Source: Acidobacteriaceae bacterium (GTDB lineage Bacteria; Acidobacteriota; Terriglobia; Terriglobales; Acidobacteriaceae). From it: DNA of 64,000 nt. The notes below the pieces were generated by a model that had not been told where the DNA came from, made no database searches, and was given only the letters and a program-made list of their open reading frames with translations. The stretch covers positions 81,451-145,450 of the forward strand of contig JASHPJ010000124.1 in assembly GCA_030038195.1 (NCBI GenBank), written 5' to 3'. Made by a program: the position numbers and the translations under genes. Shown here one piece after another: positions 1 to 15,712 of the stretch (position 1 is the stretch's first letter; the number at the start of each line of letters is the position of its first letter).

Positions 1-388
1 GGGCGCAACCAGATGGATGTCCAGGACCCTCTCGGACGGACGATACATCACCCCGGAAATGGCCGAAATCCGCTGAAATTTAGACGTGACCATCCAGTTC
101 GTCCGGAGCCTGTTGCCTCGAAAGCTGTCCTATCACTTTTTTATGAATGTACCGGTTGCCCCGGACGGAGAGCTGAATTGCGCAGACGAAACTTCCGCTG
201 CAGGGAAGTGCATGGAGCTGCGCGCAGAAACAGATGTGCTTGATGCTCATCAGCAACTGCCCGCAATTAAACAACCCAGGGAATGCCTATAACCCTATGT
301 CGATTGAAGTGCTGATCTGGGATGCCTCAAGGCAACGTTCCGCAGAGTTTTTCGTTCATGTGATTGCCCCGGTTTTTGCCCCGGCCTC
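1..388. other. No gene seen upstream of fluoride operon promoter
   Basis: Only short ORFs without ribosome-binding sites or recognisable domains occur on either strand. I see no tRNA, repeat or terminator. It is the upstream flank of the promoter at 389-417. Confidence 0.5.
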
Positions 389-417
389 TTGATAAGGAGG
401 TGTGGCAGATATATACT
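389..417 (+). promoter_or_regulatory. Sigma70-type promoter of the fluoride operon
   Basis: A -35 hexamer TTGATA (389-394) and a -10 hexamer TATACT (412-417) are separated by exactly 17 bases. Each differs from consensus at one position. A start near 424 would place the fluoride aptamer (431-490) at the very 5' end of the transcript, as is usual for riboswitch leaders. Inferred by eye; no transcript data. Confidence 0.75.
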
Positions 418-430
418 GTTAGTAGTTTGT

Positions 431-515
431 GGTGACGGAGTTCACCCTTAACCGCTGTCCCATCCAATAGGCTGGACAGATGATGACTCCTGACAGGGAT
501 TCCTGTTGGGGGAGT
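431..515 (+). promoter_or_regulatory. Fluoride riboswitch 1 (crcB motif), upstream of eno
   Basis: P1 is GGTGA (431-435) with TCACC (442-446). Its loop contains GGAGT (437-441), which can pair with ACTCC (486-490) as the pseudoknot typical of the crcB motif. P3 is CTGTCC (455-460) with GGACAG (474-479), followed by the conserved GATGA-ACTCC region. In the expression platform the same ACTCC strand can instead pair with GGAGT at 511-515, extended by ACAGG (493-497) with CCTGT (502-506), so ligand binding and this hairpin exclude each other. The hairpin lacks a U-tract, and the next gene (eno, 778) is 263 nt away, so whether control acts on transcription or translation is not clear. Confidence 0.93.
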
Positions 516-777
516 TGTGTCCCGGCTCGATCCCTGATCAGAAAATCCAGGAGTTTGCGTTCATGTTGAGCGCTCGGATTTTGTCCGCATTCGGGGACTT
601 CATTCTGCTGACGGCCACGCTGTCTGCGATCCGTTTTCGGTACGCAGCGCTCTTGCCCGCTCCGATTCTGACCTCACCTAGAGCGCAGTTCTTGATGCGT
701 GTTCCTGGCGCACCCTTTTCCTTATTCATGCAACTTTTTTCTACCAATGGCCTGAATGGCTGAGAAAGTGTGAAACG
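516..777 (+). other. Long leader between fluoride riboswitch 1 and eno, unexplained
   Basis: 262 nt without a convincing gene. An ORF on the plus strand (ATG at 563, preceded by CAGGAG, stop at 763, 66 codons) and one on the minus strand (about 538-729, 63 codons, basic) overlap here; neither matches a family I recognise. The spacing is odd for a riboswitch and could be an insertion or the remnant of a gene that the switch originally controlled. Confidence 0.4.
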
Positions 778-2079
778 ATGTCCGAAATTGCAAGGCTCGA
801 AGCTCTGGAAATTCTCGATTCCCGTGGGAATCCAACACTCGCTGTCACCGCAACTTTGTCGAATGGCGTGCAAGCAACTGCAAAAGTGCCATCCGGCGCA
901 TCGACCGGAAAACGGGAAGCGGTTGAGCTGAGAGATGGCGATAAAAGACGCTATGACGGTAAGGGTGTCCTCAGGGCCAAGAGCCACGTGGAGACCGAGA
1001 TTCTGAATTGGGTCCGCGGTCTCGATGCCAACAATCAAGCCGCTCTTGACAAGACAATGTGCGAGCTTGATGGAACGCCAAACAAAGCCCGTCTTGGAGC
1101 CAATGCCATTCTTGGTGTTTCTCTGGCGGTAGCGCGGGCCTCGGCAGCCGATCGCGGCTTGCCGCTGTACGCCAGTCTTGGGGATCTTTCAGCCAACCTG
1201 ATTCCAGCTCCTTGGTTCAATGTATTGAATGGCGGAAGACACGCCGATAACAGTGTCGACTTCCAGGAGTTCATGATTTCGCCAGTGGGAGCGCCTCGAT
1301 ACAGCGACGGTTTGCGCGCCGCGGCTGAGACATTCCACGCGTTGAAGTCCGTTCTCCACAAAAAGGGCCTGAACACCGCCGTCGGCGATGAGGGCGGCTT
1401 TGCGCCCCAATTAAAGTCGAACGAAGAGCCGATTGAATTGATTCTCGAAGCGATTCACAAGGCCGGCTACAAGCCGGGAAAAGATGTAGTTCTCGTGCTC
1501 GATCCGGCAACAAGCGAGCTGTTCGAAGACGGCGAATATGTTTTTGCGAAATCGGGCAAGAACAGAATGTCGCCTGCGCAGATGATCGAATTCTGGAGCG
1601 GCTTGCTCGATCAGTACCCCGAGATATGGGCGCTTGAAGACGGAGTGGCCGAGGACGATCGTACGGGATGGCAGCGATTAACCAGGATGCTCGGCGATCG
1701 AATTCAGTTAGTCGGTGACGATAACTTTGTGACCAACCCATCGATCTTCAAGCAAGGGATCAAGGATGGAATTGCCAATGCGATTTTGATCAAGCTGAAC
1801 CAGATCGGCACGGTAACGGAAACACTGGAATGTATCCAGATCGCGCGCGCGAACGGCTATGGCGCGGTCATCTCCCATCGATCAGGAGAGACGGATGACA
1901 CCAGCATTGCGGACCTGGCCGTAGCCGCAGGCATGGGGCAGATCAAGACGGGCTCAACCAGCCGCGGAGAGCGCATCGCCAAGTACAACCGCTTTTTAGA
2001 GATTGAGCAGGAGCTTGGATCGAAAGCTCGCTATGCTGGTTCCAGTGTGTACGAGCGCTGGCAGGCGGTGAAGGCTTAA
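778..2079 (+). CDS. eno: Enolase (phosphopyruvate hydratase), in fluoride-controlled operon
   Basis: Interconverts 2-phosphoglycerate and phosphoenolpyruvate in the cytoplasm with two Mg ions. At 433 aa it is normal length. Seen: the phosphate loop SGASTG, VGDEGGFAP with the catalytic glutamate, metal ligands in VLDPATSE, ALEDG and QLVGDDNFVTN, the catalytic-lysine region ILIKLNQIGT, SHRSGETDDT and the substrate lysine in IKTGS. The active site appears intact. Odd: NGGRHADN, where most bacterial enolases have NGGAHA or NGGSHA, and ALEDGVAEDD in the loop usually IEDGLDE. Enolase is the best known enzyme inhibited by fluoride and is a known member of crcB-riboswitch regulons, which fits the aptamer upstream. 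Its ribosome-binding site (GAG then 12 nt) is weak. It may be a second, stress-specific enolase, but the rest of the genome is not visible. Confidence 0.96.
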   Translation: MSEIARLEALEILDSRGNPTLAVTATLSNGVQATAKVPSGASTGKREAVELRDGDKRRYDGKGVLRAKSHVETEILNWVRGLDANNQAALDKTMCELDGTPNKARLGANAILGVSLAVARASAADRGLPLYASLGDLSANLIPAPWFNVLNGGRHADNSVDFQEFMISPVGAPRYSDGLRAAAETFHALKSVLHKKGLNTAVGDEGGFAPQLKSNEEPIELILEAIHKAGYKPGKDVVLVLDPATSELFEDGEYVFAKSGKNRMSPAQMIEFWSGLLDQYPEIWALEDGVAEDDRTGWQRLTRMLGDRIQLVGDDNFVTNPSIFKQGIKDGIANAILIKLNQIGTVTETLECIQIARANGYGAVISHRSGETDDTSIADLAVAAGMGQIKTGSTSRGERIAKYNRFLEIEQELGSKARYAGSSVYERWQAVKA

Positions 2080-2097
2080 GAGAGCCAAAACCGATAT

Positions 2098-2171
2098 GGG
2101 TGTTGGAGTCCACCAGAGATCGCTCGCTAGGGCAGATGACTCCTCGGGAGCCAAAAATTCGGAGGAGTCAT
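2098..2171 (+). promoter_or_regulatory. Fluoride riboswitch 2 with translational expression platform
   Basis: P1 is GGTG (2099-2102) with CACC (2111-2114); its loop has GGAGT (2105-2109), complementary to ACTCC (2139-2143). A short P3 can form from GCTC (2122-2125) and GGGC (2130-2133). The ACTCC strand belongs to the run 2136-2145, which is perfectly complementary over 10 bases to 2162-2171; that second strand contains the Shine-Dalgarno GGAGGAG and the first two bases of the ATG at 2170. With fluoride the pseudoknot would occupy ACTCC and free the ribosome site; without it the start would be sealed. There is no promoter between the eno stop (2079) and here, so this looks like an intra-operon switch. 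Confidence 0.87.
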
Positions 2172-4272
2172 GCCCAACAAAGGTCTGGAAGTGGTGAAGT
2201 CCCGACGCCCAGGCGAGTTGAACGAGGCGCAGCAGCGGCGTCTGCTCGTCTCCTGCCAATACATTGACAAGCTGCTTGGCAGCATCGAAAACGCGCTGCA
2301 CTCCGCGTCGTCGCTATCGCCATTTCCACGGTATGTCGTCGACGTGACGCCCGCCCAGGCGCGCGTATTGGAAGACCACATACGCCGCATCCGGACTCAA
2401 CTGCTGCACGCCTTGGATTGGCAGTGCATGAAGCCGGAACCACCTGAAATTCCTGTCACGCGAGCGATCACTACCGATCTCGCATTCATCGATATCGCAA
2501 TCGAAGAACTCAGGCCGAGCTACATGCGTGGAAGTGGCGCTGTGCCCGAGGACGCGGTGGCTGAGCTGAACGGGGTCGTTCACGAGCTGCGCTCCATTGT
2601 TCAAAGCATGAACCACTATGTTCGTCAGGAGCTGGGCATCAATCTCGAATCGCGTCTGCGCAAGCTGGAAGCGACCGGGTATAATGTGGCTCTTTTGCGC
2701 CTGATCGAGGAACTCATTACCCGTCATGGGCTCGTAGAATTTCGCGCGCGCATTGACTCGCTGGCTTCCCGTCTCGAGGACAACAACCTTGAGGTTGCCC
2801 TGTTCGGCCGCGTCAGCAGCGGAAAGTCGTCGCTCTTGAATGCTCTTCTGAACACCAACGTTCTTCCCGTAGGCATCAATCCCATTACCGCCGTTCCAAC
2901 AAGACTGACTTATGGACCGGCCGTTCGCGCTGCCATCACATTCGGCAGCGGCAGAGAAGAGGAAGTCACTCTCGACGAGCTTGCCAAGCTGGTGACAGAG
3001 CAGGGAAATCCCGGCAATCTGCGCAACGTCGTGCGCGCTGTGGTTGAGGTTCCTTCTCCGCGACTCAAGCAGGGCATCGTCCTGGTGGACACCCCTGGGC
3101 TTGGCTCGCTGGCCCGGCGCGGCGCCGCAGAGACGCTGGCCTATCTGCCATCCTGCGATCTTGCGCTCTTTCTTCTTGACGCGGGAACTTCACTCAATGA
3201 CGAAGACATCGGCACTCTTCGCCTGCTTTATGAGGCAGGGATCCCCGCGATTGTGCTTCTCAGCAAAGCAGACCTTCTTGCTCCAGGGGACCTGCATCAG
3301 ACAACCGGCTACATTCAGGAACAGCTTCATGCCGAGCTCGGCCTCGGGACAAGCGTGCACGCCGTCAGCTCACTGCCGGAGCGGACGGTGCTGCTCGATC
3401 ATTTCTTCGAATGTGAGCTCCTTCCGCGATTTGAGCAGGCGCGTGCGCTTCGGAACAGCTCTATCGCCAGAAAAATTGGGGCATTGCGCGATTCCGTTGC
3501 CGCGGCCCTTACCACGATCCTGGACCAGACAAAGCGGAGAGGGCAGGAATACCCAAGCGATGTGCACGATCTTGAGGAGCAACTGCGCTTGATCACAGGT
3601 GAGATCGGGGAGCAGGGCTCCATTTTAAGCCACGCCTTCTTCAGGCTTGCCGAGATGCCGGATGCGATCCTTTCCGAAGCGGCGGACAGCGCAGTTGCGT
3701 GGGTGCTGGCAAACAAAAAACCTCGCGTCTCCTCGATGCGGCTTTCCGAGTGGCTGCACGACGCCGTCTGGAACGCGGTGGGGCGCAGTGTTGACGATGT
3801 CCGCGAGGTCTGTCGGCGCGCCATCTTTACTCTTCAGACCGTAGCCCAGGAGATGGGGCGTACAGACGTGCCATCTCCCGATGAAATAGAGATTCTGTTG
3901 CGCGATGTGCCCCGGTTCGAGTTGGCTACGCTTCCGGAGAGCGTGAATCTGCAGCCGTGGGTGTTTCTGGGAAACCGGTTCCTGCGGTATAAGGTGCGAG
4001 CGTCTCTTCGAAGCAATGTTGGCGGCCTGGTGAAACAAGAGCTGCATCTTTATGGGCAGGCGTTATCGCAATGGGGTCGGCAGTTCGCAAATAAGATCGT
4101 GCATCTGGTGGGGTCGTATGCCGATGCCTACCGTGTTCAACTGCACCGGATTACCGGAACCTCGAATGACGCTGTGGACGTTCCCCAGCTTGAGCGGGAT
4201 CTATCTCTGTTGGCAAGCTGGACGGCAGATGAAGGCGCCGGCGTGACCGACACCCTGCAGAAGGAGGCCTGA
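2170..4272 (+). CDS. Dynamin-like GTPase, fluoride-riboswitch controlled
   Basis: 700 aa. About 200 mostly helical residues precede a GTPase domain with P-loop GRVSSGKS (213-220), G3 DTPGLG (about 307-312) and G4 SKAD (about 365-368). A long helical region follows, with no obvious stretch long enough for a certain transmembrane helix. The layout is that of bacterial dynamin-like proteins, which use GTP to assemble on and remodel membranes. The start is fixed by GGAGGAG at 2161-2167 and by the overlapping riboswitch 2. The TGA is followed after two bases by the TTG start of crcB, so translation is probably coupled. A dedicated role in fluoride stress (membrane protection, or organising CrcB) is inference. 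A second, only distantly similar GTPase lies at 6451. Confidence 0.85.
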   Translation: MPNKGLEVVKSRRPGELNEAQQRRLLVSCQYIDKLLGSIENALHSASSLSPFPRYVVDVTPAQARVLEDHIRRIRTQLLHALDWQCMKPEPPEIPVTRAITTDLAFIDIAIEELRPSYMRGSGAVPEDAVAELNGVVHELRSIVQSMNHYVRQELGINLESRLRKLEATGYNVALLRLIEELITRHGLVEFRARIDSLASRLEDNNLEVALFGRVSSGKSSLLNALLNTNVLPVGINPITAVPTRLTYGPAVRAAITFGSGREEEVTLDELAKLVTEQGNPGNLRNVVRAVVEVPSPRLKQGIVLVDTPGLGSLARRGAAETLAYLPSCDLALFLLDAGTSLNDEDIGTLRLLYEAGIPAIVLLSKADLLAPGDLHQTTGYIQEQLHAELGLGTSVHAVSSLPERTVLLDHFFECELLPRFEQARALRNSSIARKIGALRDSVAAALTTILDQTKRRGQEYPSDVHDLEEQLRLITGEIGEQGSILSHAFFRLAEMPDAILSEAADSAVAWVLANKKPRVSSMRLSEWLHDAVWNAVGRSVDDVREVCRRAIFTLQTVAQEMGRTDVPSPDEIEILLRDVPRFELATLPESVNLQPWVFLGNRFLRYKVRASLRSNVGGLVKQELHLYGQALSQWGRQFANKIVHLVGSYADAYRVQLHRITGTSNDAVDVPQLERDLSLLASWTADEGAGVTDTLQKEA

Positions 4273-4274
4273 AC

Positions 4275-4649
4275 TTGCAAAGATATTTCTTTATTGCGAT
4301 TGGCGGCGCATTGGGCTCGATTACCCGGTACTGGGTGGGCTCGGAAGTCGCCGATCGCATGGGAACCAAGTTTCCATACGGCACATTCTTCATCAATATC
4401 TCGGCCTGCGTGATTATCGGGTTCTCTCTCACTCTGCTGGCAAAGCGGGCAGAGTTGAGCCCCGCCTGGAGGTTCCTGGTGCCGGTCGGTTTTGTCGGCG
4501 CCTACAGCACTTTTTCGACCTATGAATGGGAAACCCTATCTTCCATTCGAACGGGGGCTTTTTTCATTGCGGCGTTATACGCGGTCAGCAGTCTTCTTCT
4601 TGGGCTCGTTGCGGTCTGGTTTGGCTCTCTTATCGCGGAGATCATCTAA
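4275..4649 (+). CDS. crcB: Fluoride-specific ion channel CrcB/Fluc
   Basis: 124 aa inner-membrane protein with four hydrophobic segments, the usual size of a dual-topology Fluc subunit. Seen: GGALGSITRYW near the N-terminus, GTFFINISACVIIGF (family pattern GT-x3-N-x3-G) and GFVGAYSTFSTYEWE, which carries the Phe-box and the polar TxFS track of fluoride channels. It exports fluoride and is the diagnostic gene for the crcB riboswitch. The start is TTG at 4275, preceded by AAGGAGG at 4261-4267 inside the end of the GTPase gene. Its TAA overlaps the ATG of the next gene (TAATG), showing one operon. Confidence 0.96.
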   Translation: MQRYFFIAIGGALGSITRYWVGSEVADRMGTKFPYGTFFINISACVIIGFSLTLLAKRAELSPAWRFLVPVGFVGAYSTFSTYEWETLSSIRTGAFFIAALYAVSSLLLGLVAVWFGSLIAEII

Positions 4650-5215
4650 TGAGAACGCAAAAGCAACTCGCTTTTTACCAGTCAATCCTTGAAGCGCTTG
4701 CAGAGGCCGGGTGCCCGTTTTGCCGGTTCTTAAAGGACTACCAGGCAGCACGACTTCAAATTCACTCGAACCGCCAGTTCCAATACCTGTGTAATTTTCA
4801 TACCTGGGGCCTGGCTGCGGTACAGAACGCCCTGACTGCCGCAGAGGTCTTTCTGGACCTGGTCGAGAAATCGGCGATAGTCACTGGAGAGCATCCAAGC
4901 TGTGAAATCTGCAGCGAAGTTGCTGCCGAAGAGGATAGGCGGATTCGGGAGCTGGCAAGCTGCATTCACCGGACCGATGTTACCGATTGGCTGCGCAAGG
5001 ACGCGATATTCTGCATTCCTCATGGAACCAAGCTGCGCCACCAGGTCCAGCCTGTCGTCGCCGCCCGTATTGATGCAATTATCGACAACCACCGCAGGCA
5101 ATTGATTCAGGAACTGGAGACATTGCATGACACGCCACAGACGGACAGGCCAGGCTGGGGCGCGCTGGGACGCGCCGCGGAGTTCCTGGTTTCGCAACGT
5201 GGTCTGCATGTATAG
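4649..5215 (+). CDS. Cys-rich protein of unknown function (CPFC and CEIC motifs)
   Basis: 188 aa when started at the ATG that overlaps the crcB stop (TAATG, 4647-4651). An upstream in-frame extension to 4526 lies inside crcB and is unlikely. Seen: CPFC (residues 22-25), a LCNFH segment, CEIC, and a Cys-x-Pro-His segment (FCIPHG) before a helical C-terminus. Pairs of Cys and the His suggest a structural zinc site; the arrangement recalls DUF6062-type proteins, but I cannot confirm that. No signal peptide, so cytoplasmic. Its position between crcB and the DUF190 genes implies a role in fluoride response, otherwise unknown. Confidence 0.8.
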   Translation: MRTQKQLAFYQSILEALAEAGCPFCRFLKDYQAARLQIHSNRQFQYLCNFHTWGLAAVQNALTAAEVFLDLVEKSAIVTGEHPSCEICSEVAAEEDRRIRELASCIHRTDVTDWLRKDAIFCIPHGTKLRHQVQPVVAARIDAIIDNHRRQLIQELETLHDTPQTDRPGWGALGRAAEFLVSQRGLHV

Positions 5216-5230
5216 AAGGAGCCAAGAAGC

Positions 5231-5977
5231 ATGTTGAATGCCGGCAAGGCTGTCAAGGTATCGATCTACGTGAGTGAAGGGGCAACACATCACGGCGTTC
5301 CCACTTATTCCAGCATCATCGACTTTCTTTTTTATCGAGGTATTTCAGGCGCGACGGTGTTGAAGGGCATTGCCGGATTCGGTGCTGACCATCATATGCA
5401 CTCTGCCGGTTACGTTGAAATATCTCATCACTTGCCTCTCAAGATTGAATTTATCGAGACGAAGGAAAAGGTGGACGAAATTCTCGGCAAGCTTGAAGAG
5501 ATGGCCGGGAGCGGGATGATCGAGATCCAGGAGACCACGGTGGCAAAACCCGCCCGGGTTTCAAAGTCGAAAAAGATGGCGCCGCCCGCGCACCTGAAAA
5601 TTGAGGGCAAGGCAAAAATGATGCGCATCTACATCGGCGAAGTCGATCGCTGGAGGGACAAGCCTCTTCATACTGCCCTCGTTGAGGCCATGCGGGCGAA
5701 CGATATCGCCGGTGTCACTGTGTATCGGGGCATCCTCGGCTACGGCGCTCATGGACGCATTCACAAAGACAAGGCATTACATATCTCCCACGACGCCTCG
5801 ATCATGCTGTCGGTGATCGATCGAGAAGAGAAGCTGCAGGCCTTCCTCCCGATTGTTGAGCAAATGGTGGAGGAAGGGTTGGTGGTTTTATCCGATGTCG
5901 ACATTATCAAGTATTCCTACCGCGCAATGGAGGTCGAATCACCAGAAGCAACTGGATCGGGAAGCAGTTCAGCATAA
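5231..5977 (+). CDS. Double DUF190-domain protein
   Basis: 248 aa with two copies of the DUF190 domain (about 8-100 and 128-230) joined by a basic Pro/Lys linker. Each has the family core: a first strand (KVSIYV, MMRIYIGE), a helix, then GISGATVLKGIAGFG or AGVTVYRGILGYG, and a C-terminal IEI or VVL strand region. DUF190 is a ferredoxin-like or PII-like fold often encoded beside crcB, in places fused to it. Small-molecule sensing by analogy with PII proteins is inference. AAGGAG at 5216-5221 supports the start. The second domain is closer to the single DUF190 protein that follows than to the first domain. Confidence 0.9.
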   Translation: MLNAGKAVKVSIYVSEGATHHGVPTYSSIIDFLFYRGISGATVLKGIAGFGADHHMHSAGYVEISHHLPLKIEFIETKEKVDEILGKLEEMAGSGMIEIQETTVAKPARVSKSKKMAPPAHLKIEGKAKMMRIYIGEVDRWRDKPLHTALVEAMRANDIAGVTVYRGILGYGAHGRIHKDKALHISHDASIMLSVIDREEKLQAFLPIVEQMVEEGLVVLSDVDIIKYSYRAMEVESPEATGSGSSSA

Positions 5978-5991
5978 GCGGAGGCTTAGCC

Positions 5992-6354
5992 ATGAAGGAA
6001 CAGTTTCAAGCGCGCATGTTGCGGGTCCATTTCGGCGAAGGCGATAAGTGGCAGGGTAAGCCGCTGCATGAAGCGATTGTCGCCAAATGCAAAGAGGTAG
6101 GCATGGCTGGCGCCATTGTGTACCGGGGCATCGAGGGATATGGATCCAGCACGCGAATACGGCATGCCAGGGCCCTGTCGCGCGATGCGCCCATCATGCT
6201 GAGCATCATCGACTCTGAAGAGCAGATCGCCAAACTGATTCCCCATCTCGACACAATGGTTGAGGAAGGGCTGATCGCTATGTCTCATGTGGAGGTCATA
6301 CGGTATTCGAAAGGCTCTGCGGGCGCTCAGAAATTCGATATTCCGATTGGTTGA
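5992..6354 (+). CDS. DUF190 protein
   Basis: 120 aa, one DUF190 domain with MLRVHFGEGDKWQGKPL at the start, AGAIVYRGIEGYG in the middle and a terminal VEVIRYSKG region. It closely resembles the second domain of the preceding gene and probably arose by duplication. GGAGG at 5980-5984 precedes the ATG by 7 nt, and only 14 nt separate it from the upstream stop, so it is in the same operon. PII-like oligomerisation is expected from the family; the ligand is unknown. Confidence 0.9.
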   Translation: MKEQFQARMLRVHFGEGDKWQGKPLHEAIVAKCKEVGMAGAIVYRGIEGYGSSTRIRHARALSRDAPIMLSIIDSEEQIAKLIPHLDTMVEEGLIAMSHVEVIRYSKGSAGAQKFDIPIG

Positions 6355-6450
6355 CTGCAGGGACTCGCCGATTTTGGAGAACGACAGTCTCAAGCGAGCG
6401 GCAACATCTCGGTGAACTCTGATCGAGCCGGCAGAATGCAAGGCGGCACC

Positions 6451-8205
6451 ATGACAGATCATGAATCTATACAGACGGATCGTGCGGCGCTCTTACAGTC
6501 CGTTGACGTTCTTTCCGACTTGGCAAAACGCAACCAGATCGAGGACCTGCAGGTCGCGCTGGCGGCGCTTTCGGAAAAGTTAGAGAGGAACCGCTTCAAT
6601 CTGGCCGTGCTCGGCCAAATGAAGCGCGGCAAGAGCTCGTTCATCAATGCATTGCTGGGTGCGGAAATATTACCTACCGGTATCCTCCCGCTCACATCCG
6701 TGATTACCCGAGTGACGTATGGGCCCGTGCCAACGGCAACCATCTTCTATAATTCGGGCCGATCGGAATCGATCGAAGTACCGGCTCTCCGCGAATACAT
6801 CACGGAAGCAGCTAACCCTGGGAACCGGAAACAGGTGGCCGCCGCGGAAGTAACCTATTCTGCCGGGCTCCTGCGCATGGGAATTGATCTCATTGATACA
6901 CCGGGGATCGGTTCAACTCACTCACATAACACGTCGACAACCGAGGACTATCTCAGCGAAGTCGATGCCGGCATCGTGGTACTTTCTGTCGACCCTCCGA
7001 TTACTGCCGTCGAATTGCAGTTCCTGCGGCGCGTTCATGAGGATATTCCCCGGTTGCTGTTCGTCATCAACAAGGCTGACATGGTGATGCCGAGCGAGCT
7101 GGAAACCATTCGGAGATTTCTTGAGCGCGAGCTGCGTAATCGTATCGGTATTGAGAGTCCCGAGCTTTTCCCGCTTTCTGCGCGCCAGGCGATGCGGGAG
7201 CAGTTAGATCCAACGCTGGAAAAATCCAGCGGCTTAGAGCAACTGGCTGCCCGGCTTCATTATTTTGCTTCCAAGGAGCGGGAACGGACCCTCCTTCAAT
7301 CGATCGGACTCGACTTATTGCGCATAGCAAACACTCTCCGCTTCACGGCACTCATCGGCGAAAGAGCCAGAGCGATGCGTGGCGAGGATCTCGAAAAGCG
7401 GAAACAATTGCTCGAAGCGGCGCTTGCGAAAAGCGATCAGGAATTCAAGGACCTGCGTCATCTGCTTCGACAGGACGCGGCCTCGATCGTCGCGCAGGTA
7501 GAGGCTGATCTTAAAGACCATGTTGCCGCGGCAAAGCCCGGAGTGCGTGAGCAGCTAACAAGATTAAGACAGGAGCATCCAACGGAAACCCGCTTGCGGC
7601 TGGGAGAGCTGCTGGATCGGTTCCTGGGTGATGAAGTTGCGGCTACGTTTGATGGATGGTGCACGAGAGAGGACGAATATATCCAAAAGAAATTGGCGGA
7701 ATTATCGGATCGGTTCGTTGAAAGAACGAACACGGTGCTGGAACGGCTGCAACAAGCAGCCGGCGCGTTGTTCGATGTTCCGGTTTCGCACGTAGATTTC
7801 AGTTCGGCTCTGACGATGGAGAGTCATCTTTATTACCATACGGACCCTGTTTTTATGTATCAACTGGACAAGTTGATCTTTATCCTGCCTAAATTCCTGC
7901 TGCGTCCCATCGTGTTTCGCAGGATGCTGAGCTATATCGACAGAGAGCTCGATCGCAACTCAGGGCGAATCCGCTATGACTACGTGCAGAGGCTGGAGAA
8001 ATCCATCGCTGCATTCGAGCAGGAACTGAAGAGCGCAGTTTCCATCGTCACCGATAATCTCCGTCGCGTGCTGCAATCGGGGGCAAAGGATGCCGAATGC
8101 TCACAGGCAACCGTATCGCAATTGGACCCAATCATTGCACAGTGCTCCTCGCTGCTGGCTGGAGCAAATCTGAATCCTCAATTTGCGGAAACTGCGGGAG
8201 GGTAA
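6451..8205 (+). CDS. Second dynamin-like GTPase
   Basis: 584 aa from the ATG at 6451, which has AAGGCGG (6440-6446) at good spacing; the frame is open to a GTG at 6412. GTPase motifs lie close to the N-terminus: P-loop GQMKRGKSS (about 55-63), G3 DTPGIGS (about 149-155) and G4 NKAD (about 207-210). Long helices follow. A hydrophobic patch with FILPKFLLRPIVFRR (about residues 475-490) could be the membrane-contact paddle. It lacks the 150-residue N-terminal region of the GTPase at 2170, so the two may form an unequal pair, as seen in some bacterial dynamin-like pairs. Same operon as crcB by position and orientation; the 96-nt gap upstream has no terminator I can see. Confidence 0.85.
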   Translation: MTDHESIQTDRAALLQSVDVLSDLAKRNQIEDLQVALAALSEKLERNRFNLAVLGQMKRGKSSFINALLGAEILPTGILPLTSVITRVTYGPVPTATIFYNSGRSESIEVPALREYITEAANPGNRKQVAAAEVTYSAGLLRMGIDLIDTPGIGSTHSHNTSTTEDYLSEVDAGIVVLSVDPPITAVELQFLRRVHEDIPRLLFVINKADMVMPSELETIRRFLERELRNRIGIESPELFPLSARQAMREQLDPTLEKSSGLEQLAARLHYFASKERERTLLQSIGLDLLRIANTLRFTALIGERARAMRGEDLEKRKQLLEAALAKSDQEFKDLRHLLRQDAASIVAQVEADLKDHVAAAKPGVREQLTRLRQEHPTETRLRLGELLDRFLGDEVAATFDGWCTREDEYIQKKLAELSDRFVERTNTVLERLQQAAGALFDVPVSHVDFSSALTMESHLYYHTDPVFMYQLDKLIFILPKFLLRPIVFRRMLSYIDRELDRNSGRIRYDYVQRLEKSIAAFEQELKSAVSIVTDNLRRVLQSGAKDAECSQATVSQLDPIIAQCSSLLAGANLNPQFAETAGG

Positions 8206-8281
8206 GTCAAGGGCAGCTTACTGTTGACTGGTCGAAAGTCGCGAAAAGTAAGTCACCAGAGTTTCGGAGAAGGATAAACCG

Positions 8282-8647
8282 GTGATTGCTTTCTGCACAC
8301 GTTGCTGGCGTGAGATTGACTCGGAGATCGCACAGTGCCCGCGCTGTGGGGCTGATCAGAGTCATGACCTGCGATCGTACGAAGAAAAGATTGTTGCTGC
8401 GCTCGCACACCCGCTGCCGGAGGCGAGGGCGCGCATCTGTTGGCTCATTGGGGAGACGCACATTCGCGCGGCGACTCCGAACCTGATAGAGATCGTGGAA
8501 AACGATCCGGATATTTTTGTCCAGAGGGCAGCCATAGAGGCATTAGGGGCATTACAGGATCCGCGCTCGGATGCAATATTATGTGCGATCAGTAGAAGCG
8601 ACAATCGTTTCCTGGCCAATGCCGCCCGAGAAAGCCTCAGAAAATAG
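8282..8647 (+). CDS. Zinc-ribbon plus HEAT-repeat small protein
   Basis: 121 aa. The N-terminus has CTRCWRE and CPRCGAD, two CxxC knuckles 13 residues apart that form a zinc ribbon. The rest is two to three HEAT-like helical repeats of the PBS-lyase type, containing EARARICWLIGE and VQRAAIEALGAL. The start is GTG at 8282 with GGAGAAGG at 8266-8273. Such repeats normally mediate protein-protein contacts. It ends the first fluoride operon, so an adaptor for the neighbouring GTPase is a reasonable guess only. Confidence 0.8.
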   Translation: MIAFCTRCWREIDSEIAQCPRCGADQSHDLRSYEEKIVAALAHPLPEARARICWLIGETHIRAATPNLIEIVENDPDIFVQRAAIEALGALQDPRSDAILCAISRSDNRFLANAARESLRK

Positions 8648-8663
8648 GCGTCAACATTGGCTA

Positions 8664-8698
8664 TTTATCTTACCGGAAATTAGGTGCTCGGTAGGATA
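8664..8698 (+). terminator. Stem-loop after the first fluoride operon
   Basis: TTATCTTACCG (8664-8674) pairs with CGGTAGGATAA (8688-8698) over 11 bp including one G-T wobble. It lies 17 nt after the last stop codon, in the right place for an operon end, but there is no T-run behind it, so it may be a 3' stabilising structure rather than an intrinsic terminator. The rest of 8699-8829 shows only a poor promoter-like TAAACT at 8818. Confidence 0.45.
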
Positions 8699-8829
8699 AG
8701 TGCGCTATTCCTTCGGAAAACTCAGCCACTTATTAAGTACTCGGCTATCCTATGCTTGCAAACGATATACATTCGTCTGGGCAGGTGATCAAACATTCTT
8801 GCGATCGATTACCGTGATAAACTAAGTGT

Positions 8830-8900
8830 GGCGAAGGAATCCGCCTTCGAGCGCCACCTGAGAGCAGGTGACTGATGATTCCTACCGATCTGGTAGGAGT
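8830..8900 (+). promoter_or_regulatory. Fluoride riboswitch 3 (crcB motif), upstream of the MutS-like pair
   Basis: P1 is GGCG (8830-8833) with CGCC (8842-8845). The loop contains GGAAT (8836-8840), which pairs with ATTCC (8878-8882). This is the same pseudoknot as in the other two aptamers with a compensatory base change, good evidence for the structure. P3 is a perfect CACCTG (8855-8860) with CAGGTG (8865-8870) closed by AGAG, followed by CTGATGA. The platform is an alternative hairpin of ATTCCTACC (8878-8886) with GGTAGGAGT (8892-8900). That second strand holds AGGAG (8895-8899), 5 nt before an ATG at 8905, so the design again points to translational control. Confidence 0.9.
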
Positions 8901-8904
8901 CTGT

Positions 8905-8997
8905 ATGCCCCTACCAAAGTTTTACTTGAAGCACATCCCTCTGGAGGCGAGTACGCTTACCTGGACAGAGGCGCCCGGTATGAGTGGTCACATTTGA
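8905..8997 (+). CDS. 30-codon leader ORF under fluoride riboswitch 3
   Basis: ATG at 8905 is 5 nt after AGGAG (8895-8899), which the riboswitch can sequester. The peptide begins MPLPKFYLKH and ends MSGHI, with TGA at 8995-8997. The next ATG, of the MutS-like gene, is at 9001 and in the same frame, so ribosomes could re-initiate after the TGA. No family recognised. It is either a real leader peptide that couples the switch to mutS, or the old 5' end of that gene cut off by a stop codon. Confidence 0.55.
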   Translation: MPLPKFYLKHIPLEASTLTWTEAPGMSGHI

Positions 8998-9000
8998 CGC

Positions 9001-10581
9001 ATGGTTAGCCGGTCTATGATGAACGGCTACTCAAGGCAAATTGCTATGACTTTTCACAGCATATTATTCGAAGGTGCAGATCAAGAATTCTCTGCAGAGT
9101 GCGCTACAGAGCCAGCATTCTTCAACGACCTGAACCTCGATCAATTTGTGAACAGAGTGACAACCGGGTGGGAGGAGTACAACCTTGCTCCCTTCTATTA
9201 CACGAGGCTAGGAGACTTACAGACCATTATCTTCCGCCAGCAAATCGTGCGGGACCTCGAGCCCCCAACTCTCTTCCAGGCAATCAAGTCTTTTTCCGCG
9301 CAGATGCAAGCCATGCGGCGGCGTATTGACCAGGCGAAACAATTTTTTTATGAACGTGCCAGCCAGAGAGGGTTTCTCGGCGCTGTCGAAATCTATTGCG
9401 CGGCTGTCGAGCGGCTGACCCTGGATATCTGCTCGCACGAACCGAAGTCCCAGGGCCTGATTCTGCTGCAGGATTATCTGGCTCATTATGTCTCTTCTGC
9501 TGGTTTCCGTGCACTTGTAACAGAAACGGAGGCTCTCAAGGCTGACCTGGCCACGATCAAATATTGCCTGCTGATCAAGGGAGATACGATAACGGTCCGC
9601 AATCCCGAGGATGAGGATGATTACAGCGTGTCGGTCGAGGAGACCTTCAAAAAATTCAGACGCAACGCGGACCAAAGGTTTCGAATCGAGGTGCGCCAAA
9701 TAGAGGGCGTCAATCACATTCAAGCCCAGGTACTCGATGGATTAGCAACGTTACATCCCGATACTTTCGAAACGCTGAAGACCTTTTGTACGATTCATGC
9801 CAACTATCTGGATCCTGTAATTGCGCGGTTTGACAGAGAAGTGCAGTTTTATATGGCCTATCTGACCTTTATGAACAAGCTGCGCATATTCGGTCTCAAT
9901 TTTTGCCTGCCGGAACTTTCACAAACCGCGAAAGCAGTAGAGGGGCATAACGTCTATGATCTTGTTTTAGCCGCAAAACTCGTCGATGACAAGGCAACAG
10001 CAGTCTGTAACGATTTCACTCTTTCTGGCGCAGAGAGGATCTTCGTCGTAACCGGTCCTAATCATGGCGGCAAAACTACGTTTGCCAGAATGTTCGGACA
10101 AATGCACTATCTAGCCAGTCTCGGCTTGCCGGTCCCAGGCACAGAGGCTCGTCTCTTTCTATTTGATCGCTTGTTTACTCACTTCGAACGGCACGAAAAT
10201 GTTGCCAATCTTCGCGGCAAGCTACAAGACGACCTGGTTCGAATCCGCAGCATCCTGGATAAGTCGACTCCAAACAGCGTGATCATCATGAACGAAATCT
10301 TCGCGTCTACAACTCTTCAGGATGCCACCTTTCTCAGTCGGCAGATTATTACCCATCTTTCCTCGCTTGACCTCCTTTGCGTGTGCGTCACATTTTTAGA
10401 TGAATTAGCTTCATTGAATGAAAAGACCGTCAGTATCGTGAGCACGGTTGACCCGGATAACCCGGCGATTCGAACCTTCAAACTGGAGCGGCGGCCTGCC
10501 GACGGGCTTGCGTATGCATTGGCTATCGCGCAGAAGCATCGCGTCACCTACGGATTCTTAAAGGAGCGCATTCCCGAATGA
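9001..10581 (+). CDS. MutS-family ATPase A, fluoride-riboswitch associated
   Basis: 526 aa. The C-terminal part is the MutS ATPase domain with Walker A GPNHGGKTT (about 351-359), a Walker B-like VIIMNEIF (about 426-433) and FASTT. The N-terminal 300 residues are helical, like the MutS core/lever domains; there is no mismatch-reading domain with an FxE motif, so it is not a standard mismatch-repair MutS. MutS-like genes are known members of crcB riboswitch regulons, but their function there is unknown. The start is uncertain: ATG 9001 sits 3 nt after the leader ORF stop (possible coupling), while ATG 9046 has AAGG upstream. Overlaps the next gene by ATGA, so the pair is likely made together and may form a heterodimer. 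Confidence 0.88.
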   Translation: MVSRSMMNGYSRQIAMTFHSILFEGADQEFSAECATEPAFFNDLNLDQFVNRVTTGWEEYNLAPFYYTRLGDLQTIIFRQQIVRDLEPPTLFQAIKSFSAQMQAMRRRIDQAKQFFYERASQRGFLGAVEIYCAAVERLTLDICSHEPKSQGLILLQDYLAHYVSSAGFRALVTETEALKADLATIKYCLLIKGDTITVRNPEDEDDYSVSVEETFKKFRRNADQRFRIEVRQIEGVNHIQAQVLDGLATLHPDTFETLKTFCTIHANYLDPVIARFDREVQFYMAYLTFMNKLRIFGLNFCLPELSQTAKAVEGHNVYDLVLAAKLVDDKATAVCNDFTLSGAERIFVVTGPNHGGKTTFARMFGQMHYLASLGLPVPGTEARLFLFDRLFTHFERHENVANLRGKLQDDLVRIRSILDKSTPNSVIIMNEIFASTTLQDATFLSRQIITHLSSLDLLCVCVTFLDELASLNEKTVSIVSTVDPDNPAIRTFKLERRPADGLAYALAIAQKHRVTYGFLKERIPE

Positions 10582-12152
10582 AGGCGTTACTCATGCATCG
10601 CGACCAGGACTTCAACGTCCAGCAGAAACGGCCGTGGAATGAAGCCATTCTCACACAGGATCTGGAGTTGAATCCTCTCTTCAGCGCTATGGCGGCCGGT
10701 GACCAATTCCTTTTCGAGGTCGCAAGAGCAGCCCTGTTCTCCGGACTCCAAAACAATCTGGAGACCATATTGTATCGGCAGGAGGTGCTTAAGGATTGCC
10801 TAGCAAGACCGGAATGGATAAAGAAGCTCTACGATCTCACGGTGGATGCCACGGACCGCACAAAGCGGATGTGGTGGGACTTATCCAGCCATTATCCCGA
10901 TTCTGTTCTCTTTGGCGCAGTCTCGCTGCTCGATTCGCTTCTGGAAGCGCTCAGGACGCTGAGGGGCATCGCGGAAGAAGCTGGCGGCCAGTTTTTCTCG
11001 GCGGGGTTTACGACTCTTTTCTCTACACTCCGCAGTGAGCTTGATAACGAGTATTTGGCAACGATTGAACAGTATTTAACAGATCTAAAATTTCGAAATG
11101 GAACTTTATTGCGTGCAACTCTGGGCGAAGACAACGAAGGCACAAATTATATGTTGGTCAAGCCGCCCAAAAGAGAACCAAGCTGGTTCAAGCGCATGCT
11201 CTCCAAAGCACCTCCAGGCTACACCTTCCATCTGGATCCGCGCGATGAGGCAGGTGCAAGGATTGTATCGGGAATAAGACAGCGCGGGATCAGTCGGGCT
11301 GCAATCACTTTGGCCCAGTGCGCTGATCATGTTTTAAGCTTCTTCAAAACATTGAAGGCTGAGCTGGCCTTCTACAAGGGATGTATGAATCTTCACGACA
11401 GATTGACAGCTAAAGGCGAGCCGGTGTGCTTCCCTGTTCCGGCTCCGCTTGTTGAGCGTAAGCATCGGTTCAAGGGGCTGTATGATGTGTGCCTTTCGCT
11501 CCACCTTGATCGTAAGCTGGTGGGCAATGAGGCGGATATGAACGGTAAAAGTTTGACCATTGTTACTGGCGCCAACCAGGGCGGCAAATCCAGCTTTCTA
11601 CGCTCAATTGGCTTGGCGCAGCTCATGATGCAAGCGGGCATGTTCGTTGGCGCTGAATGTTTCGAGGCTGAACTCTGCCCCGCTCTTTTTACTCATTACA
11701 TACGCGAAGAGGATGAGACTCTGAAGGGTGGAAAGCTGGACGAAGAACTTGCAAGAATGAGCGAAATTGCCGACTATATTGTGCCAGACTCGCTCCTGCT
11801 CCTCAACGAGTCCTTTGCCGCGACAAATGAGCGGGAGGGATCAGAGATAGCGAGTCAAGTAATCCGCGCACTTCTCGAAAAAAGAGTCAAGATATTCTTT
11901 GTCACACACCTATACTCGTTTGCAGCCGGCATCTTTGAACAAAAAACTGAAGAAGCATTCTTTCTGCGGGCCGAGAGGCTTTCCGACGGGACACGAACGT
12001 TCAGGCTGCTTGCACAGGGGCCACTTGAAACCAGCTACGGGGAAGACTTGTACCGGGAGATTTTTGCTGGAAGCCCAAACCGTGAAGCCACATCCTCGCG
12101 TGAAGCTGGCGTCACAAGCCGGGCAGAAGCGACTGCTTCTACGCCTACATAA
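10578..12152 (+). CDS. MutS-family ATPase B
   Basis: 524 aa; the start overlaps the stop of the upstream MutS-like gene (ATGA, 10578-10581). Walker A is GANQGGKSS (about 331-339), followed by the typical FLRSIGLAQLMMQAGMFV region, and Walker B-like LLLLNESFAATNEREGSE (about 406-423) with the helix and histidine region FVTHLYSF after it. Again the mismatch-binding domain is missing. Organisation and shared helical N-terminal parts suggest it arose with the upstream gene by duplication and that the two work as a pair. A strong terminator follows at 12255. The role in fluoride tolerance is unknown; the context alone links them. Confidence 0.88.
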   Translation: MKALLMHRDQDFNVQQKRPWNEAILTQDLELNPLFSAMAAGDQFLFEVARAALFSGLQNNLETILYRQEVLKDCLARPEWIKKLYDLTVDATDRTKRMWWDLSSHYPDSVLFGAVSLLDSLLEALRTLRGIAEEAGGQFFSAGFTTLFSTLRSELDNEYLATIEQYLTDLKFRNGTLLRATLGEDNEGTNYMLVKPPKREPSWFKRMLSKAPPGYTFHLDPRDEAGARIVSGIRQRGISRAAITLAQCADHVLSFFKTLKAELAFYKGCMNLHDRLTAKGEPVCFPVPAPLVERKHRFKGLYDVCLSLHLDRKLVGNEADMNGKSLTIVTGANQGGKSSFLRSIGLAQLMMQAGMFVGAECFEAELCPALFTHYIREEDETLKGGKLDEELARMSEIADYIVPDSLLLLNESFAATNEREGSEIASQVIRALLEKRVKIFFVTHLYSFAAGIFEQKTEEAFFLRAERLSDGTRTFRLLAQGPLETSYGEDLYREIFAGSPNREATSSREAGVTSRAEATASTPT

Positions 12153-12254
12153 ACGGGAGCAACTTGCTCTCAAAGAAGGCTATCGCACGCCGACGCACCG
12201 CGAGGGCCGCCTCTGTAAGCGGAATGCCGCTACGAGGAGAAAGTGGATGTCCAG

Positions 12255-12302
12255 AGCAGTTCCAGAGTTTGCGTGTTCTTTTGCAACTCTGGAACTGCTT
12301 TA
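12255..12302. terminator. Strong intrinsic terminator between convergent operons
   Basis: A stem of about 17 bp between 12255-12272 and 12282-12298, with one extra T in the left arm and a short loop, is followed by TTTAAAA on the plus strand. It separates the plus-strand MutS-like genes from the minus-strand receptor ending at 12340 and may act in both directions. Confidence 0.8.
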
Positions 12303-12339
12303 AAACCACCTTGCCCCTGACCTGCTTCCCTAGCGCTCT

Positions 12340-15228: not shown

Positions 15229-15274
15229 AGTATCTCCAGTGCAATGGCAGCCGGATCGGCTGCGGGCCAGTCGA

Positions 15275-15712
15275 TTAGGTGGCTTGCGTCGATGAACCGG
15301 AGACAGGCGGACCCCGTAATGAATTGCGCTGGAGGAGCCAGAGCCGGCGCGCGTCCCGAAGAGCGGCAGATGCGCCTCTGAAGATGGGCGGGGGCGTTGC
15401 GAGAAGAGCAGTGGCCGGCGAATCTGAAATCTCGTGATGGAACAACGCGGGAAGAGCCGGGGTGCACGGACATTTCTCCGTGACCTGGGATACCCGGCCT
15501 TTGCCAGCTCCTTGAGAGTCTGCTGGCGCTTCGCGCATCCGCATGGAGCAGTGGTGCTTTCCATGCGCGCGGCAGCACGCCGGAAGCGAAGCTTCAGACG
15601 GAAGGCCATCTGAAGAGAAGCTCGGACAGAGCGGAGCCAGGAGAAGCAGCAGGAGGCCGAGCGCGCACGCGCGCTGGAGCCGGTTGTACCGATGCTGCCT
15701 GGATTGCGCCAC
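15275..15712 (-). CDS. Small secreted Cys/His-rich protein, paralog 1
   Basis: 145 aa from a GTG at 15712 with GAGAGG upstream. It has a long hydrophobic signal segment (ALGLLLLLLAPLCPSF), then LPACCRAHGKHHCSMRM, later KCPCTPA, and a C-terminal RGPPVSG. It is clearly related to the protein at 15948-16340: both have LPACC-x3-GKHHC-x-MRM, a CP motif about 30 residues later, and RGPP near the end. Cys, His and Met ligands at fixed spacing, secretion and the nearby multicopper oxidase suggest copper or other soft-metal binding. I do not recognise a named family. It lies 47 nt upstream of receptor 1 and is probably co-transcribed. Confidence 0.75.
   Translation of the reverse strand: MAQSRQHRYNRLQRACALGLLLLLLAPLCPSFSSDGLPSEASLPACCRAHGKHHCSMRMREAPADSQGAGKGRVSQVTEKCPCTPALPALFHHEISDSPATALLATPPPIFRGASAALRDARRLWLLQRNSLRGPPVSGSSTQAT

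What the first reader, a model, noticed from the sequence alone, without database searches (positions are those of the whole stretch)
389..12302. Fluoride-response island with three riboswitches and at least ten genes
Three aptamers with the crcB fold lie within 8.5 kb, one at the operon head, one inside the operon and one before a second operon. Known crcB-regulon genes (crcB, eno, mutS-like, DUF190) are mixed with two dynamin-like GTPases, a Cys-rich protein and a zinc-ribbon/HEAT protein that I do not know as fluoride genes. The layout suggests a large multi-part fluoride defence.
Basis: partly seen in the sequence, partly recalled or inferred. Interest (0 to 1): 0.93.

Follow-up and report, generated by a model that had tools for sequence, protein, structure and literature searches.

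The report
Fluoride-sensing RNAs controlling dynamin-like proteins
This bacterial gene cluster carries three RNA elements of the fluoride-riboswitch family in front of a fluoride-exporter gene, a second enolase gene and two dynamin-like GTPase genes, and the same kind of RNA sits just upstream of related dynamin genes in many other bacteria and in a few genomes labelled as archaea, so cells likely switch on membrane-shaping proteins when fluoride gets in.

Summary
A covariance model built only from other genomes' aptamers finds all three riboswitches (E 3.3e-11, 5.4e-9, 3.6e-7; next 0.44); Rfam's own cut-off passes only the first. Element 2, missed by Rfam, has the aptamer's long-range A-U pair changed to U-A, a change that covaries in relatives. 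Elements 2 and 3 can, by prediction, hide the ribosome-binding site with the strand the aptamer needs. Ten genes follow, among them eno, crcB, DUF190 genes, a MutS-like pair and two dynamins.

The new point is the dynamins. In 149 phylum genomes 28 of 32 strong dynamin-family genes lie downstream of a fluoride aptamer. In 80 dynamin loci fetched by protein similarity 42 have one within 300 nt upstream (other ORFs: 9 of 358). They form one clade. The Cys-rich protein is also fluoride-linked: its four copies in three other genomes lie by an aptamer (3) or crcB (1).

Most likely the dynamins keep the membrane sound against HF; that step is inferred. No fluoride experiment was run. In the papers searchable here I found no report linking dynamins to fluoride riboswitches; the main gene list (Baker 2012) was not readable.

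The parts
389..417 (+). sigma-70-like promoter (TTGATA-17-TATACT) directly before aptamer 1
   Evidence: consensus scan; weak evidence (2 sites found in 250-12400, shuffles mean 6.5)
422..499 (+). fluoride riboswitch aptamer 1, head of operon 1
   Evidence: RF01734 37.5 bits, above gathering 34; R1 E 3.3e-11
778..2079 (+). eno, second enolase of the genome
   Evidence: TIGR01060 605.8 bits; the other enolase is on contig C37 with 710 bits, 61% identical over 423 columns
2092..2149 (+). fluoride aptamer 2 with the long-range A-U pair changed to U-A, directly before dyn1
   Evidence: R1 E 5.4e-9, not listed by Rfam at E <= 5; covariation
2137..2172 (+). predicted expression platform: UGACUCCUC (2137-2145) pairs with GAGGAGUCA (2162-2170), covering the ribosome-binding site and the A of the dyn1 start codon
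   Evidence: folding; kinds of platform in relatives
2170..4272 (+). dyn1, dynamin-like GTPase, 700 aa, with about 200 residues before Dynamin_N
   Evidence: Dynamin_N 85.1 bits at residues 209-348, gathering 27; own clade n=7, support 1.0
4275..4649 (+). crcB (Fluc fluoride channel), the only one found in the genome
   Evidence: TIGR00494 107.8 bits; PF02537 search of own genome, 1 match
4649..5215 (+). Cys-rich protein, 188 aa, conserved C/H motifs
   Evidence: 401 homologues at E <= 1e-5; copies in other genomes lie by aptamers or crcB; resembles the C-terminal part of the C90-type dynamin
5231..5977 (+). DUF190 protein with two domains
   Evidence: PF02641, 2 stretches, 203.3 bits
5992..6354 (+). 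DUF190 protein with one domain
   Evidence: PF02641 106 bits
6451..8205 (+). dyn2, dynamin-like GTPase, 584 aa (longest ORF starts at 6412)
   Evidence: Dynamin_N 101.3 bits; AlphaFold2 model pLDDT 91.4, pTM 0.85; BDLP/IniA/mitofusin matches
8282..8647 (+). zinc-ribbon/HEAT protein, 121 aa
   Evidence: HEAT_2 54.1 bits, gathering 27.7; zinc ribbon sub-threshold; present in fluoride loci L062, L065, L147, L163
8823..8888 (+). fluoride aptamer 3, head of operon 2
   Evidence: R1 E 3.6e-7; RF01734 27.9 bits at 8821-8891, below gathering
8877..8907 (+). predicted platform: GAUUCCUACC (8877-8886) pairs with GGUAGGAGUC (8892-8901), hiding the ribosome-binding site before AUG 8905
   Evidence: folding
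8905..8997 (+). possible 30-residue leader ORF ending 3 nt before the first mutS-like start codon
   Evidence: translated; its expression is not tested
9001..10581 (+). mutS-like gene a (MutS domain V ATPase)
   Evidence: PF00488 63.3 bits; below all MutS equivalog cut-offs
10578..12152 (+). mutS-like gene b (MutS domain V ATPase)
   Evidence: PF00488 69.6 bits; below all MutS and KamC equivalog cut-offs
12255..12301 (+). terminator-like hairpin (15 pairs, short T tail) after operon 2
   Evidence: read from the sequence; not listed by the scan

Best explanation
Window 389-12301 holds two gene sets headed by fluoride-riboswitch aptamers, with a third aptamer directly before the first of two dynamin-like GTPase genes; fluoride binding would free ribosome-binding sites that are predicted to be hidden, and the dynamins are predicted to keep the cell membrane sound while CrcB would expel fluoride. 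Shown: the three aptamers by covariance model and covariation, the ten genes, and the recurrent placing of fluoride aptamers upstream of this one dynamin clade. Predicted: the switch. At elements 2 and 3 the strand GACUCC/GAUUCC can pair either inside the aptamer's pseudoknot or with the ribosome-binding site, so a fluoride-stabilised pseudoknot would turn translation on; element 1 lies 280 nt before eno and would act on the whole transcript. Inferred: HF crosses the membrane, acidifies the cell and lowers the potential that drives CrcB channels; dyn1 and dyn2 would assemble as a heterotypic pair on the inner membrane and tether, patch or reshape it, much as is proposed for DynA or the Campylobacter DLP1/2 pair, while the second enolase replaces a fluoride-inhibited enzyme. 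The Cys-rich and zinc-ribbon/HEAT proteins would be partners of the dynamin machinery.
For: Aptamers. Structure: on 103 aptamers the pseudoknot and the long-range pair, neither part of the search model's structure, covary (long-range pair AU 90, UA 7, GC 4, other 2); over the whole structure 160 cells are changed on both sides, shuffles mean 36.4, slid controls at most 21. Platforms: of 103 aptamers 37 are followed by a stem of the pseudoknot strand over a ribosome-binding site and 22 by a terminator-like stem; stems of 8 or more pairs in 54 of 103 against 8.2% of shuffles. Dynamin link: 28 of 32 strong Dynamin_N genes (over 70 bits, my threshold) in 24 of 149 phylum genomes have an aptamer upstream on the same strand within 6 kb, 17 of 32 within 104 nt of the ORF start or overlapping it; in 80 loci fetched by protein similarity 42 have it within 300 nt and 11 more within 6 kb, against 9 of 358 other ORFs (odds ratio 43, p 1.5e-27), and 43 aptamers lie at that place against 4 just downstream and 4 upstream on the opposite strand. 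Rfam's own model passes its cut-off upstream of the dynamin in 10 of 10 such loci that I chose from those with an R1 hit, two with archaeal titles included. Six weaker dynamin genes of the phylum have no aptamer in the fetched flanks, and the aptamer-linked genes fall in one clade of 110 (support 0.953). Membrane role: model and sequence matches to BDLP, IniA, Campylobacter DLP1/2 and mitofusins; the most hydrophobic stretch after the GTPase domain (residues 466-484, above zero in 79% of 58 sequences) lies in the loop between two long helices; another operon of this genome puts a cyclopropane fatty acid synthase (CMAS 283.8 bits) and a third dynamin under a fluoride aptamer, an arrangement repeated in L149 behind a weak aptamer hit (E 0.01).
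Against: No expression or fluoride data exist for this genome, and ligand binding by the variant aptamer 2 is untested. The membrane role rests on fold and company, not on an assay; a stretch in the first long helix (284-302) is nearly as hydrophobic as 466-484. R1 was seeded from aptamers found next to dynamins, though position was not used in scoring. Of 53 phylum genomes with an aptamer at E <= 0.01, 31 have no strong dynamin gene, so the dynamin is not required for a fluoride regulon. 27 of the 80 similarity-fetched loci show no upstream aptamer: five have under 400 nt of upstream sequence, in one (L108) the aptamer lies inside the longest ORF, and six are one well-supported Desulfuromonadales-type group with none. 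Cyclopropane synthase appears in only 3 of the 97 neighbour proteins scanned. The dynamin of contig C90 has a Cys-rich C-terminal part where dyn2 has its trunk, so it may not touch membrane in the same way. Most loci are metagenome bins, so host labels, archaeal ones above all, may be wrong for single contigs.
Confidence: 0.6

Rival explanations
1. The dynamin-like GTPases and the MutS-like ATPase pair are cytosolic reactivating machines that pull apart enzyme complexes frozen by fluoride (Mg-F or Al-F trapped nucleotide sites, enolase-Mg-F-phosphate), not membrane proteins.
For: One MutS-like protein matches KamC, a reactivase ATPase, best among NCBIfam models, though far below its cut-off (66.9 bits against 300); the pair shares 6 of the 80 loci with the dynamin. 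The C90-type dynamin has a Cys-rich C-terminal part where dyn2 has a long trunk.
Against: The model of dyn2 has a full trunk and matches membrane dynamins over most of its length.
Confidence: 0.15
2. The dynamin is a general envelope-stress protein that many stresses induce; fluoride is only one input, and it does not add to fluoride tolerance.
For: 27 of 80 loci lack an upstream aptamer; known dynamins act in phage, antibiotic and envelope stress (start of the abstract of PMC8844932, seen in the listing; passages of PMC6104087).
Against: In the phylum sample 28 of 32 strong dynamin genes are downstream of a fluoride aptamer, and many share the locus with crcB, DUF190 or eno.
Confidence: 0.15
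3. The dynamin is a spare copy of, or a decoy for, a fluoride-inhibited GTPase, in the way the second enolase is a spare enolase.
For: Fluoride-metal complexes mimic phosphate in GTPases (recalled); the regulon contains a second enolase.
Against: Among the 24 phylum genomes with strong dynamin genes, a strong copy without an aptamer was seen only in G070 and, at a contig end, in G056, so there is mostly no housekeeping copy for it to replace.
Confidence: 0.05
4. Element 2 is a decayed, non-functional aptamer and dyn1 simply follows element 1.
For: Rfam does not list it at E <= 5 and the joining strand departs from consensus (GAUCGC for AACCGC).
Against: Its pseudoknot is complete, the long-range pair is changed on both sides in the same way as in 6 other aptamers, the linchpin A and U (invariant in 103 of 103) are kept, and its 3' strand can pair with the dyn1 ribosome-binding site.
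Confidence: 0.1

Closest known systems
Fluoride (crcB motif) riboswitch regulon, RF01734 (Weinberg 2010 PMC2864571, passages; Baker 2012, recalled)
   Same: Aptamer fold, pseudoknot and linchpin; crcB, eno and mutS-like genes; Na+/H+ exchangers and Usp under the same aptamers in relatives.
   Different: Adds a dynamin clade, a Cys-rich family and a zinc-ribbon/HEAT protein; three aptamers in 8.5 kb; one aptamer with U-A in place of the A-U long-range pair.
Campylobacter Cj-DLP1/DLP2 heterotypic dynamin pair (5OWV; PMC6104087, passages read)
   Same: Two dynamin genes in one operon, one with an N-terminal extension before a BDLP-like fold.
   Different: The word fluoride does not occur in that paper's text; its assembly domain is 119 residues while dyn1 has about 200 before Dynamin_N; homology of the two N-terminal parts was not tested; here crcB, the Cys-rich gene and DUF190 genes lie between dyn1 and dyn2.
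BDLP1 (2J68/2J69), IniA (6J72), DynA and other bacterial dynamins
   Same: Dynamin_N domain, G motifs, long helical trunk.
   Different: Only 17-18% identity to BDLP1 and IniA in the structural alignments; regulation of those genes by a fluoride riboswitch was not checked here.
Enterobacter cloacae FRM fluoride operon ppaC-uspA-eno-gpmA-crcB-orf5249 (PMC5533749, passages read)
   Same: One riboswitch heading a multi-gene fluoride-resistance operon with eno and crcB, tested by knockout.
   Different: No GTPase, DUF or MutS term occurs in its text; one aptamer.

Membership tests
Fluoride riboswitch (RF01734) | Rfam gathering score of 34 bits | tested here: inconclusive
   Element 1 met (37.5), element 3 not (27.9), element 2 not listed at E <= 5; phylum-tuned model hits all three
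Fluoride riboswitch (RF01734) | P1, P3, pseudoknot and linchpin A40-U48 | tested here: met
   All three are in alignment A6; pseudoknot 99.0% paired with changes on both sides in 5 of 6 pairs; the linchpin A and U columns are invariant in 103 of 103
Fluoride riboswitch (RF01734) | Binds fluoride and changes gene expression | not testable with these tools
   Needs in-line probing and reporters
CrcB/Fluc fluoride channel | TIGR00494 equivalog cut-off 80.45 bits | tested here: met
   107.8 bits
Enolase | TIGR01060 equivalog cut-off 300 bits | tested here: met
   605.8 bits
Dynamin superfamily | Dynamin_N GTPase domain above gathering, with G motifs | tested here: met
   dyn1 85.1 and dyn2 101.3 bits, gathering 27; GKS, D.PG and K.D positions invariant in the 58 sequences of A7
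Dynamin superfamily | Long helical trunk with membrane-binding tip | tested here: inconclusive
   Trunk predicted for dyn2 only; hydrophobic loop is suggestive; lipid binding not testable here
Bacterial dynamin DynA (NF052648) and LeoA (NF041922) | Curated NCBIfam cut-offs (1600 and 325 bits) | tested here: not met
   DynA model 47.1 (dyn1) and 77.5 (dyn2) bits; LeoA model 18.4 and 20.9 bits
DNA mismatch repair MutS | MutS1/MutS2 equivalog cut-offs | tested here: not met
   Best 75 bits against 480; of MutS domains only domain V matches in Pfam
KamC reactivase ATPase | NF052383 cut-off 300 bits | tested here: not met
   47.5 and 66.9 bits
Cj-DLP1/2-type heterotypic pair | dyn1 and dyn2 bind each other through the N-terminal part of dyn1 | not testable with these tools
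   Only co-location and a separate N-terminal ORF in L046 and L056 were seen

The most novel reading that the evidence does not exclude
Fluoride resistance in a wide range of bacteria and some archaea includes a dedicated dynamin: an ancient clade of dynamin-like GTPases whose default regulator is the fluoride riboswitch, often as a dyn1/dyn2 pair with Cys-rich and HEAT partners. It remodels or reseals the cytoplasmic membrane against HF, making membrane mechanics a third arm of fluoride defence beside export and enzyme replacement.
Probability: 0.5. Interest if true: 0.92.

Novelty: new variant of a known kind. Interest (0 to 1): 0.85.

Why it matters
Bacterial dynamins mostly lack a known natural trigger (recalled). 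A clade whose genes so often carry a fluoride-sensing RNA names a likely trigger and makes its role testable with one salt. It also suggests that fluoride hurts cells through the membrane as well as through enzymes, which bears on fluoride tolerance and on engineering microbes that release fluoride from organofluorines. The covarying long-range pair widens what counts as a fluoride aptamer and helps explain why a standard search misses element 2.

Tried and rejected
Phage-defence reading of the dynamins: PADLOC gives LeoA 63.1 (dyn2) and 35.0 (dyn1) bits and other weak matches, with no cut-off to judge by; set aside because of the aptamers. MutS-like pair as DNA mismatch repair: below every MutS equivalog cut-off. 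Cys-rich protein: BLASTP against the C90-type dynamin gave nothing (E 0.11), a profile of 23 against 2 sequences gave 22%, profiles of 120 against 120 gave 85% and E 6e-6, with a reversed control at 1.2%; I treat the link as likely, not proven. Its predicted model (pLDDT 79.9) had no PDB match below E 1.4, which shows nothing about novelty. ORF 506-763 between aptamer 1 and eno was not pursued. In one search I counted 126 dynamin ORFs including short fragments (61 near, 26 farther, 39 none); the stricter counts are used instead. One search used R1 hits to E 0.01 plus two found by R2 (L111, L136); weaker R2 hits upstream of dynamins (for example L113, E 0.01; L153) were left uncounted.

Papers: searches ('fluoride riboswitch' + dynamin; fluoride + dynamin-like + bacterial + riboswitch; crcB + dynamin) gave 0, 0 and 5 papers, the five unrelated by title and abstract start; searches were wider, and only their listed part was seen. 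Weinberg 2010 (PMC2864571), PMC7266159, PMC11139923, PMC5533749, PMC9971707, PMC10687018 and PMC6104087 were read as passages only. Baker 2012, the paper that lists riboswitch-linked genes, is not held, nor is PMC3331882, so an earlier mention of dynamins there cannot be excluded.

Full report
1. Is it there? Rfam's fluoride riboswitch model passes its own cut-off once (422-499) and sees a second site below it (8821-8891, 27.9 bits). The third site, near 2098, is not listed by Rfam at E <= 5. I therefore built a model from 11 aptamers found by a loose pattern in other genomes of the phylum, with no sequence from this genome. These 11 come from neighbourhoods of dynamin genes, so the model was seeded there, but position plays no part in its scores. 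It hits all three sites, E 3.3e-11, 5.4e-9 and 3.6e-7, and nothing else in 64 kb below E 0.44. A second, wider model finds five aptamers in the whole genome (E <= 2.1e-6, next 0.11): these three, one on contig C27 and one on C90. The genome itself is unnamed; named close relatives of dyn2 are Acidobacteriota such as Acidicapsa and Terracidiphilus.

2. Why Rfam misses element 2. In the solved aptamer a long-range reversed Watson-Crick pair joins a base of the P1 loop to the base after P3 (A10-U38 in Bacillus cereus numbering; PMC10687018, passages). On 103 aptamers this pair is AU in 90, UA in 7, GC in 4 and unpaired in 2. Element 2 is one of the seven UA cases; several of the seven come from related genomes, so they are not seven separate events. 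The pseudoknot was also left out of the search model's structure, and it too covaries: 99.0% paired, with changes on both sides in 5 of 6 pairs. All five summary measures of the whole structure exceed 500 of 500 shuffles and every slid control. Relatedness inflates the shuffle comparison, as the tool warns; the slid controls keep relatedness. The linchpin A and U columns are invariant in 103 of 103.

3. How the switches could work. In element 2 the strand UGACUCCUC can form the pseudoknot or pair with GAGGAGUCA, which holds the dyn1 ribosome-binding site and the A of its start codon. In element 3 GAUUCCUACC can pair with GGUAGGAGUC before an AUG at 8905, which opens a 30-codon ORF ending just before the first mutS-like gene. 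Across 103 aptamers a heuristic finds 37 ribosome-binding-site hairpins, 22 terminator-like stems, 26 other stems and 18 with none; stems of 8 or more pairs occur in 54 of 103 against 8.2% of shuffled sequences. The heuristic also labels element 1 a ribosome-binding-site hairpin, but eno starts 280 nt downstream, so I do not rely on that label. Fluoride binding itself is not shown.

4. The genes. Enolase, CrcB and DUF190 are certain. The enolase is a second copy; the other, on C37, scores 710 bits and is 61% identical. CrcB is the only one found in the genome. The MutS-like pair has only MutS domain V and fails every MutS equivalog cut-off; mutS was already linked to this motif in 2010 (PMC2864571, passages).

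5. The dynamins. A search of 149 phylum genomes with dyn1 found relatives in 24; the Pfam family gave 32 genes over 70 bits in the same 24, then a gap to 53 bits and many weaker matches. I fetched all 24 neighbourhoods. An aptamer lies upstream on the same strand within 6 kb in 28 of 32, and within 104 nt of the longest-ORF start, or overlapping it, in 17 of 32. The four without are one gene cut by its contig end and three distant dynamins of one contig. Six weaker dynamin genes have no aptamer in the fetched flanks. Conversely, 53 of 149 genomes have an aptamer at E <= 0.01, 22 of the 24 dynamin genomes among them, so 31 aptamer genomes do without a strong dynamin gene.

6. Beyond the phylum. 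One scan of public genome contigs with the dynamin alignment returned the best 80 loci of 486 relatives, chosen by protein similarity and not by RNA. Of the 80, 42 have an aptamer within 300 nt upstream, 11 more within 6 kb, 27 none; other ORFs of at least 200 aa in the same loci, outside the nine tested families, have it in 9 of 358 (odds ratio 43, p 1.5e-27). Of 81 aptamers in these loci 43 lie just upstream of the dynamin, 4 just downstream, 4 upstream on the opposite strand and 30 elsewhere. Rfam at its curated cut-off agrees in 10 of 10 loci that I picked from those with a model hit; by record title these include Methanolinea, Atribacteria, Planctomycetota, Bacteroidales and the isolate Moorella sulfitireducens. 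In a tree of 121 dynamins the aptamer-linked ones fall in one clade of 110 (support 0.953), while the six weaker phylum genes, two of G070's and three of L176 lie outside it; one subgroup of six inside the clade lacks aptamers, and one deep node is weak (0.399).

7. Partners. The Cys-rich protein has 401 relatives in the protein collection but few in reference genomes: 4 of 151 in the class, own included. The other three genomes hold four copies at about 31% identity; three have an aptamer within about 300 nt upstream, and one lies beside crcB and DUF190 genes on the opposite strand, with no aptamer in its 2.6 kb locus. Its profile resembles the C-terminal part of the genome's third dynamin (85%, E 6e-6; reversed control 1.2%), with the same order of C-C, C-H-W, C-C and C-H motifs. 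That third dynamin lies on C90 under an aptamer, in the order metallophosphoesterase, cyclopropane fatty acid synthase, HEAT protein, dynamin; L149 repeats the phosphoesterase, synthase and dynamin behind an aptamer that is weak there (E 0.01). Among 97 of 136 other proteins under aptamers, sodium/hydrogen exchangers (13), universal stress proteins (9) and MFS transporters (8) are commonest.

8. Mechanism. The model of dyn2 is confident (pLDDT 91.4) and matches BDLP, IniA, the Campylobacter pair and mitofusins. Its most hydrophobic stretch after the GTPase domain lies in the loop between two long helices, where the membrane tip of such proteins sits (the tip's role is recalled); a buried-looking stretch at 284-302 is nearly as hydrophobic. 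Campylobacter DLP1 and DLP2 form a tethering tetramer through an N-terminal domain of DLP1 (PMC6104087, passages); dyn1 also has an N-terminal part, which is a separate ORF in L046 and L056. Fluoride enters as HF and acid stress weakens the membrane potential that drives CrcB-type channels (PMC11139923, passages). I conclude, as inference, that the dynamins maintain the membrane under HF stress. I put about 0.9 on the fluoride-regulon reading and 0.5-0.6 on the membrane role.

9. Novelty. Within the papers searchable here I found no report that links dynamins to fluoride riboswitches. Baker 2012 was not readable, so this is not a claim about all print.

Noticed in passing
L039 (G000:C90) 3709-8671: Another fluoride-aptamer unit of this genome: metallophosphoesterase, cyclopropane fatty acid synthase, HEAT protein and a dynamin with a Cys-rich C-terminal part.
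   Followed up: partly
L040 (G000:C27) 11587-13181: A further fluoride aptamer, with a terminator-like stem, before an AAA ATPase of unknown role; an MFS-like transporter ORF (by eye) lies upstream.
   Followed up: no
L122, L123, L124, L129, L142, L146: A well-supported subgroup of this dynamin clade, with Desulfuromonadales-type names, shows no aptamer in the fetched flanks: regulation lost or replaced.
   Followed up: no
L115 (Moorella sulfitireducens SLA38): A named isolate with three Rfam-level fluoride aptamers, two adjacent crcB genes, a dynamin and a MutS-like pair in one 13.5 kb stretch: a possible test organism.
   Followed up: partly
window 8905-8997: Possible 30-residue leader ORF between aptamer 3 and the mutS-like genes, which could couple their translation to the switch.
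   Followed up: no
window 12340-15885 (minus strand): Long ORF that reads like a TonB-dependent, Oar-type outer-membrane protein (recalled resemblance only), convergent with operon 2.
   Followed up: no
L058 (G070:C105) 112-4932: Three distant dynamin genes in a row without a fluoride aptamer.
   Followed up: no
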